Below, piece by piece: positions 12,612 to 16,380 of a stretch of 45,418 nt of DNA. This stretch comes from a bacterium (GTDB taxonomy: Bacteria; Actinomycetota; Thermoleophilia; Solirubrobacterales; Solirubrobacteraceae). The notes beneath the pieces were generated by a model that saw only the letters and a program-made list of their open reading frames with translations, did not search any database and was not told where the DNA came from. Position 1 is the first letter of the stretch, and each line of letters starts with the position of its first letter. The stretch is taken from NCBI GenBank assembly GCA_021323635.1, contig JAJPKQ010000029.1, forward strand, positions 1-45,418, in the 5' to 3' direction. The position numbers and the translations under genes were made by a program.

Positions 12612-12980
12612 TCACGATTGCTCCAGAGCGTCGAGCGCGACCACCGCGTGCGCGTATGCTCCGCCGGCACGCATCTCGGCGGCTACCCAGATCGCCTCCA
12701 TGATCTCCGCCTCGCTTGCGCCATGGCGCTGCGCGAGGCGCGCATGGCCGGCGATGCAGTACGGGCACTGGGTGACGTGTGCCACTGCCACCGCGATCAA
12801 CTGCTTGGTCTTCACCGGCAGCTCCCCATCGGCGAAGACCTGCCTGCTGAATGCGTGGAAGGCATCGTGAGCGGCGGGCGCTGCCTGCTTGCGCCGCTCC
12901 GCGAGCTCTCTGGTGCTCTCGGGGTAGACGCCGTGAAGCGCACCGCTCCGATTGTTGTTTGTCTCTATTGTCCCTGACAT
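12612..12980 (-). CDS. Carboxymuconolactone decarboxylase/AhpD-family protein
   Basis: A 122-residue helical protein with the AhpD signature CPYCIAGH (C72, C75, H79), after the core KTKQLIAVAVAHVTQ. AhpD-type members use the cysteine pair for peroxide or alkyl-hydroperoxide reduction. The start at 12980 has a GGAGAG ribosome site; the longer frame upstream is not coding. It follows a cupin gene on the same strand by 62 bases, which suggests a shared transcript. Confidence 0.85.
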   Translation of the reverse strand: MSGTIETNNNRSGALHGVYPESTRELAERRKQAAPAAHDAFHAFSRQVFADGELPVKTKQLIAVAVAHVTQCPYCIAGHARLAQRHGASEAEIMEAIWVAAEMRAGGAYAHAVVALDALEQS

Positions 12981-13517: not shown

Positions 13518-13895
13518 TCACGCTGATCCCTCCCGCAAAAGCTCGGCCAGCACCACGGCGTTGTTGTGCTCGCGGTCGCGGGCCCCGTAGAGAATCGTCA
13601 GCGGTCCCGCCTCTGCACGCCGGCGCAGCTCCTGCACGCGCCCGCGCTGGCGGTCAAGCTCCGCGCGGTAGCGAGCACGAAACTCCTGAAAGCGGGAGGG
13701 CTCGTGAGCAAACCATCGCCGAAGCTCCGTGCTTGGGGCAAGCTCGCGCGCCCACTCGTCGACATTCGCGCGCTCCTTCGAGAGACCACGCGGCCATACG
13801 CGGTCGATCAGAACTCGGTATCCGTCGCTCTGCTGTGCGGCGTCGTAGACCCGCTTGATCTTGACTCCTGCAGCTGTGGTGGCAGGCGCGGACAC
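13518..13895 (-). CDS. DUF488-family protein (short type)
   Basis: A 125-residue protein with DUF488 landmarks: IKRVYD, RVLIDRVWPRGLSKE, LRRWFAHEP and LTILYGARDREHNNA. This is the YeaO-like branch, usually about 115-120 residues. I place the start at GTG 13895, since the frame upstream overlaps the ComA-like gene, whose stop is five bases away. Its biochemical role is not known. A second, different DUF488 protein lies at 18949. Confidence 0.8.
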   Translation of the reverse strand: MSAPATTAAGVKIKRVYDAAQQSDGYRVLIDRVWPRGLSKERANVDEWARELAPSTELRRWFAHEPSRFQEFRARYRAELDRQRGRVQELRRRAEAGPLTILYGARDREHNNAVVLAELLREGSA

Positions 13896-13900
13896 GGTGC

Positions 13901-14770
13901 TTACTCGGTCCTCGAGTAGGTGACCACCCGCCCCCAGAGGCTCTTCGTGCCCCAGATGCCACGCCTCAGGCACTCGAGCTGGACGATCTGCGAGTGATCC
14001 ACGAAGAGATTGACCTCGGGTCCGTAATTCTTGATGTACCAGCCGAACACCTCGGGATCGGCAGCCTCGAACATCACATGCTCAAGCCCCAGCTCGCGAG
14101 CGATGCGCGCCACCACGTCCGTCCGCCAGGTCGTGACCTCCTCAGTTATTCCCTCGGACTCGATCATGATCAGGTAGGCGCCCGCTTCCAAACAGCGGCG
14201 CGCAAGGTCAATCGCGTAGCCCACATCCCGCGTGCCCTCCTGCTCCAGCTCCTGTGGCGTGCTTGCGCCGCCCGCGCCAAACTGGATGCCGACCTCGGGC
14301 TTCGCCTTCAGGCCGGCGCGCTGGACGCGTTCGACCAATCGCAGCATGTCGTCGCTCGGAATGCTGATGAAGCCGGCGGAGACCTCGAGGATGTCAAAAC
14401 CCAGGCGCGCAACCTCATCGATGTAGCTCTCGACCGCCTCGGGCCCCAGCGTCAGCACATGCTCGATGAAGCCTCCCGTCGAGACCAGCACGTCATTTGC
14501 ATGGGCAATCTCGATGATCTCGCAGAGCGCGCGCTCCGGCATGAGCGAGAAGGAGCCGCCCGCGAACTTCAGCGCGTCGACGTGCGGGCCCATCGTCTCA
14601 AGCACATCGCGCAGGTAGCGCGGTCCCAGCGGCGAGTAGTAGGGCCCGCGAATCTCGGTGAGGCCGGTCCGGCGCGGCTTTTGGGGCCGTCGGTTGGAGC
14701 GCAGGAACGCGAACGCGAGCTCGTCGGTCTGCCGGTTTTCATCCGTCCTCGTGATCGTCTGAGCGTTCAT
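13901..14770 (-). CDS. ComA-like phosphosulfolactate synthase
   Basis: A 289-residue TIM-barrel protein of the ComA family, which joins phosphoenolpyruvate and sulfite to give 2-phospho-3-sulfolactate, the first step of coenzyme M synthesis. Visible family segments are KPRRTGLTEIRGP, VDALKFAGGSFSLMP (K68), FDILEVSAGFISIP, AKPEVGIQFGAGG and LIMIESEGI. AAGGAGG precedes the ATG, which overlaps the PrpD-like stop by four bases. Bacterial homologues occur outside CoM pathways, so the product's fate here is unknown. No ComB, ComC or sulfopyruvate decarboxylase gene is in the window. Confidence 0.8.
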   Translation of the reverse strand: MNAQTITRTDENRQTDELAFAFLRSNRRPQKPRRTGLTEIRGPYYSPLGPRYLRDVLETMGPHVDALKFAGGSFSLMPERALCEIIEIAHANDVLVSTGGFIEHVLTLGPEAVESYIDEVARLGFDILEVSAGFISIPSDDMLRLVERVQRAGLKAKPEVGIQFGAGGASTPQELEQEGTRDVGYAIDLARRCLEAGAYLIMIESEGITEEVTTWRTDVVARIARELGLEHVMFEAADPEVFGWYIKNYGPEVNLFVDHSQIVQLECLRRGIWGTKSLWGRVVTYSRTE

Positions 14771-16380
14771 CTGGAACCTCCTTGCTCGGGTCGGCGCGTA
14801 GCCGACATGTTGTCCGCCCCTGCCGGCGCGCCCTCGAGCGCCAGCAGCGAGGCGAGCTTGCGGGCTTCGATCTCCTCAAGCATGCCAACGGCCTCGCGGA
14901 TCTGCCCGCGCGCCTCCTGCGGCACATGCGGAGCGGAAAGCCGGTCGAACTTCGCGGCGACCGCGTCACTGCTCATCGGCCGCGTCAGGAAGCCTTCATA
15001 GTCACGGCGCTCGCGCTCGAGCACCCGCCCATTGCGCAAGTACAGGCGCACGCGCGCACTGTGGTGCGCGGGAAAGCGACTCGAGAGCGCGGTGTCGGGA
15101 TGCACGTGCACCCGGCGCATCAGCCGCTGGACGTCCTCCGCGGCGATCCGCTCGGCACGGTACTGCTCGGGCATGACCTGGCCGTCCAAAAGCGCAACCG
15201 CAAGCAGGTAGGGCAGCGAGTGGTCAGCCTCCTCCTTCGTGCGCACCAGGTGCTTGTCACCCTCCTCGCCACCGCCGATGATGTCGAAGGCAACCTGGAA
15301 GGTGTCGAGCTCGATGCGTCCGACCTCCGCAGCGCTCAGCCCGTGCTCCGCGCGCAGCTCGAGCAGCGCCTCAATCGCCGACTGAGAGTGGATCTCGGCA
15401 TTGTGCTTCTTTAGGATCGTGCGCGTCACCGCCTCGAGGTCCTCGCGCTGCCAATCGATCTCAAACGTGCCCGCGATCGACTCCATGAAGCCCTTGCTCC
15501 CCTCGAAGACCTCGCTCGGAGCGCTCACGCCGCGCATCGCAAGCAGCGTCGCCTGCGTCGCAGCTGCTGCCATGAACGGATAGGCGAGCCCCTTCCAGTT
15601 GGATAGCTCGCCGGTACGTGTGACACGGAGCGCGTTGAGTGCGGTGCCAGCGATCGCAAGCGCGTTGGCCGTGCGGTGCTCATCCAGGCCGAGCGCATTG
15701 GCGACGCCCGCTGCCACCGCGTAGGCGCCCTGCGTTGTGTGGTCGAAGCCCCGCGCGCGGACGGGCGCGACCTCGGAGAGTCGGCATTGCACCTGGTAGG
15801 CGACCGCAAGAGCGGTGATGAGCTCGGTGCCACTGGCGTGCGCGTACTCGCACGCCGCCAGCACCGGCGCGAAGTTGTCGCTGGGGTGGCAGGTCTCCCC
15901 CGGCGCCATGTAGGAGTCGTTGAAGTCGAGGTAGCGCACGAGCGCGCCGTTGTGGAGCGCGGCGCGATCGGGGGCCGAGCGACCGCCGCCGATCAGCGTG
16001 CAGAGCCGGGCTCCGCCAAGCTCCTTCACGTGCTCGTGGACCATCTGCGCAGGCTCCGCGCCGAGCGCACCCAGCGCGCAGCCCAGCGAGTCCAGCACTC
16101 GCAGCTTGAGCTGCTCGACCGCCTGCGCCGAAAGCTGACCGTAGCGCGCGCGCACGACGAAGCGCGCTAGACGCTGGACGTCGGTTGCGCGCCCGGGCCA
16201 GCCGCGCCGACGCGCACTGCGGCGGGCCGGGGGCGCAATTGGGTCCTGCGCGCACTCCGCTCGGCCGCGACCGGGCACAAGCCGTCGGAAGGCCGTGCGC
16301 GCGCGGCCGGCGCGAGCGGAAACGGATGCCGCGAGGCCCGTCGCGGTGGGAGCGGTGACTGCGGTCCAAGTGAGGCTCAT
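14767..16380 (-). CDS. MmgE/PrpD-family dehydratase/lyase-like protein
   Basis: A frame of 537 residues. From about residue 66 it matches MmgE/PrpD, the family of 2-methylcitrate dehydratase and cis-aconitate decarboxylase: LKLRVLDSLGCALGAL, HNGALVRYLDFNDSYM, ETCHPSDNFAPVLAA, TEL...AYQVQ, KKHNAEIHSQSAIEA, and DTALSSRFPAHHSARV. The first 65 residues are Arg/Ala-rich and unlike the family, so the real start may be downstream (a GTG lies near 16278). It is coupled to the ComA-like gene by an ATGA overlap. The substrate may be a sulfonated or phosphorylated hydroxyacid (inference). Confidence 0.82.
   Translation of the reverse strand: MSLTWTAVTAPTATGLAASVSARAGRARTAFRRLVPGRGRAECAQDPIAPPARRSARRRGWPGRATDVQRLARFVVRARYGQLSAQAVEQLKLRVLDSLGCALGALGAEPAQMVHEHVKELGGARLCTLIGGGRSAPDRAALHNGALVRYLDFNDSYMAPGETCHPSDNFAPVLAACEYAHASGTELITALAVAYQVQCRLSEVAPVRARGFDHTTQGAYAVAAGVANALGLDEHRTANALAIAGTALNALRVTRTGELSNWKGLAYPFMAAAATQATLLAMRGVSAPSEVFEGSKGFMESIAGTFEIDWQREDLEAVTRTILKKHNAEIHSQSAIEALLELRAEHGLSAAEVGRIELDTFQVAFDIIGGGEEGDKHLVRTKEEADHSLPYLLAVALLDGQVMPEQYRAERIAAEDVQRLMRRVHVHPDTALSSRFPAHHSARVRLYLRNGRVLERERRDYEGFLTRPMSSDAVAAKFDRLSAPHVPQEARGQIREAVGMLEEIEARKLASLLALEGAPAGADNMSATRRPEQGGSR

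What the first reader, a model, noticed from the sequence alone, without database searches (positions are those of the whole stretch)
13901..16380. ComA-like synthase translationally coupled to a PrpD-family protein: possible new sulfonate pathway
ComA homologues make phosphosulfolactate from PEP and sulfite. In known bacterial CoM pathways the next steps are lyase-type eliminations by fumarase-superfamily enzymes. Here the coupled partner is instead an MmgE/PrpD protein, a family of dehydratases, epimerases and decarboxylases acting on related polycarboxylates. It could eliminate phosphate or water from a sulfonated hydroxyacid. DUF488, cupin, AhpD-like and ferredoxin genes follow on the same strand. 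The pathway is inferred, not shown.
Basis: partly seen in the sequence, partly recalled or inferred. Interest (0 to 1): 0.75.

Follow-up and report, generated by a model that had tools for sequence, protein, structure and literature searches.

The report
Conserved ComA-like/PrpD enzyme gene pair
Two neighbouring genes that look like a sulfonate-making enzyme and a dehydratase travel together across at least 15 bacterial and archaeal phyla, but the first lacks the key residues of that sulfonate enzyme, so they probably form an undescribed two-step pathway, perhaps related to a heat-memory protein of plants.

Summary
ComA-like ORF 13901-14770(-) and MmgE/PrpD ORF 14767-16380(-) overlap by ATGA, with AAGGAGG ahead of comA; a DUF488 gene starts 5 nt downstream. 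The pair is not peculiar to this genome. Of the 80 closest homologues of the ComA-like protein in 84,980 species, 67 have the same PrpD directly upstream and one divergent, in 15 named phyla. In whole-genome samples 26 of 29 carriers have both genes adjacent; two more hits are cut by contig ends. Plasmids of Salinibacter, methanotrophs and haloarchaea carry it too. The sulfonate reading is weak. This clade is distinct from phosphosulfolactate synthases: invariant Gln, Glu, Phe, Phe (89/89) replace Lys137, Arg170, Gln212 and Asn227 of M. jannaschii ComA, which 25-26 of 26 other homologues keep. It scores 91 bits on the synthase model (cut-off 280; XcbB1 326). The genome holds a separate YitD-type ComA and no ComB. 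PrpD keeps its catalytic residues. Best reading: a horizontally spread two-enzyme module on an unknown (poly)carboxylate, whose barrel belongs to a ComA clade that probably includes plant HSA32. The HSA32 link could not be tested with a database sequence; substrate and reaction are unknown.

The parts
14767..16380 (-). MmgE/PrpD-family ORF (537 aa from the first ATG); conserved region 14770-16185; start codon uncertain
   Evidence: Pfam MmgE_PrpD_N/C; D152, H165, H214, K263, H331 (ORF numbering) invariant in 40 orthologues; AlphaFold model closest to IRG1/CAD, MmgE, PrpD, IDS epimerase
14767..14770 (-). ATGA overlap of prpD stop and comA start; AAGGAGG ribosome-binding site at 14777-14783
   Evidence: sequence read
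13901..14770 (-). ComA-superfamily TIM barrel of the PrpD-linked clade, 289 aa
   Evidence: Pfam PF02679; model pLDDT 83, best PDB matches 1qwg and 1u83; clade residues Q163, E206, F242, F256
13518..13895 (-). DUF488 (inactive N3 subclade), GTG start 5 nt after the comA stop
   Evidence: Pfam 144 bits; also near the pair in about 15 of 80 related loci
12612..12977 (-). AhpD/carboxymuconolactone-decarboxylase-like gene; recurrent but not universal neighbour
   Evidence: Pfam CMD 72 bits; CMD is the commonest family downstream of the pair in other loci

Best explanation
The two genes form a co-inherited, horizontally spread two-enzyme module. The ComA-like protein is a TIM-barrel enzyme of a separate ComA-superfamily clade. 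It keeps the acidic residues of ComA but not the acid/base lysine or the residues presumed to hold phosphate and sulfite, so it is most likely not a phosphosulfolactate synthase. I infer that it uses the same type of chemistry, addition to or elimination from an enol or unsaturated acid, on another substrate, and that the catalytically intact MmgE/PrpD partner dehydrates, epimerises or decarboxylates the preceding or following (poly)carboxylate. Neighbours (DUF488, AhpD, OsmC, Dps, Usp) hint at a stress or metabolite-repair role. Shown: the pairing, its conservation, the clade, the residue replacements, the predicted folds. Inferred: substrate, order of steps, physiological role, kinship with plant HSA32.
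For: Pairing in 68 of the 80 nearest homologues, 67 of them same-strand directly upstream, in 15 named phyla. Four of the 12 genomes without adjacency have a strong PrpD orthologue elsewhere. Samples: Actinomycetota 9/396 carriers, 8 adjacent, the 9th at a contig start; Chloroflexota 20/301 carriers, 18 adjacent, one at a contig edge; co-occurrence p about 1e-15 and 1e-25. Distances of the two proteins correlate (Mantel r 0.64, 0/2000). Residue replacements 89/89 against 25-26 of 26. Clade support SH-aLRT 99. Within the order, K-type paralogue loci never show this PrpD beside them (1.5-kb flanks). PrpD catalytic residues invariant.
Against: No activity is known for either protein in this clade. 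The roles given to Lys137 and the other ComA residues rest on my knowledge of the M. jannaschii structure; the paper was not held. Adjacency alone does not prove successive steps. The tree is a quick one with long branches between the clades. In some haloarchaea the PrpD is several genes away or not found.
Confidence: 0.6

Rival explanations
1. One reading: the ComA-like protein makes phosphosulfolactate from PEP and sulfite, and PrpD eliminates phosphate or water from it, giving a new sulfonate pathway.
For: Same superfamily and fold as 1qwg and 1u83; conserved acidic residues. An unrelated K-type ComA sits with PrpD and PrpF in Bradyrhizobium, in a region with tricarboxylate and SsuA/NrtA-type transporters. 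DsrE genes flank the pair in Salinibacter.
Against: Lys137, Arg170, Gln212 and Asn227 replaced in 89/89; 91 bits against a 280-bit cut-off; no ComB in the genome; a YitD-type ComA exists separately.
Confidence: 0.15
2. The ComA-like protein is a stress or chaperone-type protein without catalysis, as plant HSA32 is often described, and PrpD is only co-regulated with it.
For: HSA32, a phosphosulfolactate-synthase-related protein, stabilises HSP101 and supports heat-stress memory in plants (PMC3774812, PMC11840417). Stress-type neighbours.
Against: Extreme conservation of barrel residues and a strict partnership with an apparently intact enzyme suggest catalysis.
Confidence: 0.15
3. An ordinary methylcitrate-cycle remnant: PrpD is 2-methylcitrate dehydratase and the ComA neighbour is incidental.
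For: MmgE/PrpD family membership.
Against: Scores 93-164 bits against cut-offs of 458-950 for the dehydratase models; the partner is ComA-like in 15 phyla. Absence of prpB/prpC was not tested.
Confidence: 0.04

Closest known systems
Phosphosulfolactate synthase (M. jannaschii ComA 1qwg, B. subtilis YitD 1u83, Xanthobacter XcbB1)
   Same: TIM-barrel fold (TM 0.86 by target length); conserved acidic residues, K43 and R240 (Mj numbering)
   Different: About 25% identity; Lys137, Arg170, Gln212, Asn227 replaced; extra GAGG insert and WGTKSLWGR tail; different gene partners
Bacterial CoM operon (Xanthobacter xcb, Mycolicibacterium NBB4, Nocardioides JS614)
   Same: A ComA homologue closely linked to an enzyme that could act on its product
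   Different: Those partners are fumarate-lyase family proteins and PLP enzymes beside epoxide-metabolism genes, not MmgE/PrpD
[quoted passage not shown]
   Same: Described as phosphosulfolactate-synthase-related. A recalled, unverified Arabidopsis sequence matched this clade at about 43% and ComA/XcbB1 at 20-23%
   Different: Plant protein of unknown biochemistry; no PrpD partner known to me; kinship not tested with a database sequence
MmgE/PrpD enzymes (2-methylcitrate dehydratase, cis-aconitate decarboxylase, IDS epimerase)
   Same: Fold and catalytic Asp, His, His, Lys, His
   Different: 19-23% identity in the best structural alignments; far below the dehydratase models; its own subfamily linked to the ComA-like clade

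Membership tests
ComA superfamily (PF02679) | Pfam model above gathering score and ComA TIM barrel | tested here: met
   267 bits against 25; 1qwg and 1u83 among the top fold hits
Phosphosulfolactate synthase | NCBIfam equivalog TIGR03849 above cut-off 280 | tested here: not met
   90.9 bits; XcbB1 325.7, own paralogue 244 over its core. The CoM-linked Nocardioides and NBB4 proteins also fall below it (204-205), so the cut-off alone is not decisive
Phosphosulfolactate synthase | Lys137 and Arg170, Gln212, Asn227 (M. jannaschii numbering) | tested here: not met
   Q163, E206, F242, F256 in 89/89 of the clade
Phosphosulfolactate synthase | PEP plus sulfite to (R)-phosphosulfolactate | not testable with these tools
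   needs an assay
Sulfolactate/CoM pathway | ComB phosphatase (PF04029) in the genome, or fumarase-superfamily partner beside comA | tested here: not met
   No PF04029 in a 97.5% complete genome; partner is MmgE/PrpD. Fumarase-superfamily genes elsewhere were not sought
MmgE/PrpD superfamily | Both Pfam domains and the catalytic Asp/His/Lys set | tested here: met
2-methylcitrate dehydratase PrpD | NCBIfam equivalog cut-offs | tested here: not met
   164 of 950, 123 of 575, 93 of 458 bits
HSA32 | Closest relative among known proteins is plant HSA32 | tested here: inconclusive
   Only a sequence recalled from memory was compared; no plant sequence was available

The most novel reading that the evidence does not exclude
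A previously undescribed metabolic pathway, spread horizontally over bacteria and archaea, runs on a ComA-like lyase/synthase plus an MmgE/PrpD enzyme. Plant HSA32, whose biochemical function is open, descends from the first enzyme, so the bacterial operon would reveal what HSA32 does.
Probability: 0.45. Interest if true: 0.82.

Novelty: new variant of a known kind. Interest (0 to 1): 0.64.

Why it matters
Members of this clade on public plasmids are annotated 'phosphosulfolactate synthase', which the active-site comparison contradicts; sulfonate metabolism inferred from such names may be wrong. A strict two-gene unit shared by 15 phyla points to a real pathway for which I found no assignment in the held literature. 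If the clade includes plant HSA32, the operon offers cultivable bacteria and a partner enzyme with which to find the reaction behind a heat-memory protein.

Tried and rejected
Pair unique to this genome: rejected. Canonical CoM pathway: rejected on gene partners and on the missing ComB. Methylcitrate cycle: rejected on model scores. Viral origin: no hit in phage records or viral contigs. A third universal partner: DUF488 and AhpD recur but are not universal. Literature on the pair: no held paper mentions both phosphosulfolactate synthase and MmgE. The primary ComA, CoM and HSA32 papers tried by identifier were not held.

Full report
Observation. The ORF at 13901-14770(-) is a ComA-family protein (Pfam PF02679, 267 bits) and the ORF at 14767-16380(-) a full MmgE/PrpD protein. 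The stop of prpD and the start of comA overlap as ATGA, with AAGGAGG 6 nt upstream of the ATG, and a DUF488 gene starts 5 nt after the comA stop. Conservation of PrpD begins about residue 66 of the ORF, so its true start is uncertain. The window is contig 41 of a 2.6-Mb, 97.5% complete genome; its closest homologues come from Solirubrobacterales and Thermoleophilaceae genomes.

The pair is conserved. A scan of 84,980 species found 330 related stretches; the best 80 are 62-86% identical. In 68 of 80 the same PrpD lies nearby, 67 times directly upstream on the same strand, often with the same 4-nt overlap. These span 15 named phyla (many are MAGs, so single phyla may be misassigned). Of the 12 without it, several are cut by contig ends, and four genomes carry a strong PrpD orthologue elsewhere. 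In 396 Actinomycetota genomes nine carry the ComA-like gene, eight with PrpD adjacent and one at a contig start. In 301 Chloroflexota genomes 20 carry it, 18 adjacent, one at a contig edge, one without (that one was the centre of the sample, so not randomly drawn). Co-occurrence is far beyond chance and the two distance matrices correlate (r 0.64, 0/2000); without a species-tree control this also reflects common descent. Annotated plasmids of Salinibacter, Methylosinus, Methylocystis and Halomicrobium carry the pair; in Halorussus limi one gene lies between, and in H. halophilus PrpD is 3.5 kb away. Distribution is patchy (4 of 24 genomes of the genus, counting this one), which suggests horizontal transfer and loss.

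It is probably not a phosphosulfolactate synthase. On an alignment of 115 proteins the clade is invariant for Gln163, Glu206, Phe242 and Phe256 (89/89), where M. jannaschii ComA, XcbB1, the Legionella ComA beside ComB, the own-genome paralogue and the others have Lys137 (26/26), Arg170 (25/26), Gln212 (25/26) and Asn227 (26/26). The acidic residues (Mj E79, E103, E133, E168, E205) are kept in all 89. That Lys137 is the catalytic acid and the others bind anions is my knowledge of the ComA structure paper, not checked here. The NCBIfam synthase model gives 91 bits (cut-off 280), against 326 for XcbB1 and 244 for the own paralogue; CoM-linked actinobacterial proteins score about 204, so the model score alone would not settle it. 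The clade is separated by a long branch, SH-aLRT 99 (quick method, long-branch warning). The AlphaFold model (pLDDT 83) is a ComA barrel, best matches 1qwg and 1u83. The genome carries a second, YitD-like ComA (E 3e-55 to 1u83) among polysaccharide genes and no ComB.

The partner looks like an intact enzyme. PrpD keeps the residues equivalent to D93, H103, H159, K207 and H277 of cis-aconitate decarboxylase in all 40 orthologues; T97 is mostly Ser and Y318 is not kept (the catalytic roles are from my knowledge). It is far below the 2-methylcitrate dehydratase models. Its fold is closest to IRG1/CAD, PrpD, MmgE and IDS epimerase.

Mechanism. I commit to a two-step small-molecule module: the barrel does metal-dependent addition or elimination on an enol or unsaturated acid, and PrpD dehydrates, epimerises or decarboxylates the neighbouring intermediate. 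The pairing, residues and predicted folds are shown; the chemistry is inferred. A weak independent hint is a K-type ComA that forms an overlapping PrpD-PrpF-ComA unit in Bradyrhizobium, with TcuA and a transporter component nearby, and a related cluster in Paracoccus: the combination has arisen with another ComA clade, in what looks like polycarboxylate catabolism. Recurrent neighbours (DUF488, AhpD/CMD, OsmC, Dps, Usp, DUF302, DsrE) suggest stress or redox conditions.

HSA32. Plant HSA32 is called phosphosulfolactate-synthase-related (PMC3774812; PMC3162933) and acts with HSP101 in heat-stress memory (PMC11840417). I could not obtain a plant sequence. One recalled from memory matched this clade at about 43% and true ComA proteins at 20-23%. 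I recalled it after reading the window protein, so this is a lead, not evidence.

Verdict.

Noticed in passing
L119:7704-8540 (G000 C42:17703-18539): A second, YitD-type ComA (Lys137 kept) lies between polysaccharide genes (sugar epimerase/dehydratase, O-antigen-ligase- and flippase-like) with no ComB in the genome; possibly a sulfolactate-type decoration.
   Followed up: partly
L128:9367-12795 and L127:8989-18756: Bradyrhizobium and Paracoccus plasmids carry a different, Lys137-type ComA near MmgE/PrpD, PrpF, TcuA, tripartite tricarboxylate transporter and SsuA/NrtA-type transporter genes: a possible sulfonated-polycarboxylate catabolic cluster.
   Followed up: partly
L117:5021-5737: Unannotated partial PrpD match (43% over 241 aa) just upstream of the ComA-like gene in Natrinema halophilum, apparently a degenerating partner.
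   Followed up: no
L116:5374-5724: A CGCGG family rSAM-modified RiPP gene sits between PrpD and the ComA-like gene in Halorussus limi.
   Followed up: no
L008:1519-2339: The ComA-like gene of a congener (G003) is split in two overlapping frames: a frameshift or assembly error.
   Followed up: no
L080:4997-5767 and L093:2680-3783: In Balneolota (L079, L080, L086, L093, L103) the pair lies among DUF2249, FeS-assembly-P, winged-helix and ferredoxin genes plus these two conserved proteins without a Pfam match.
   Followed up: no
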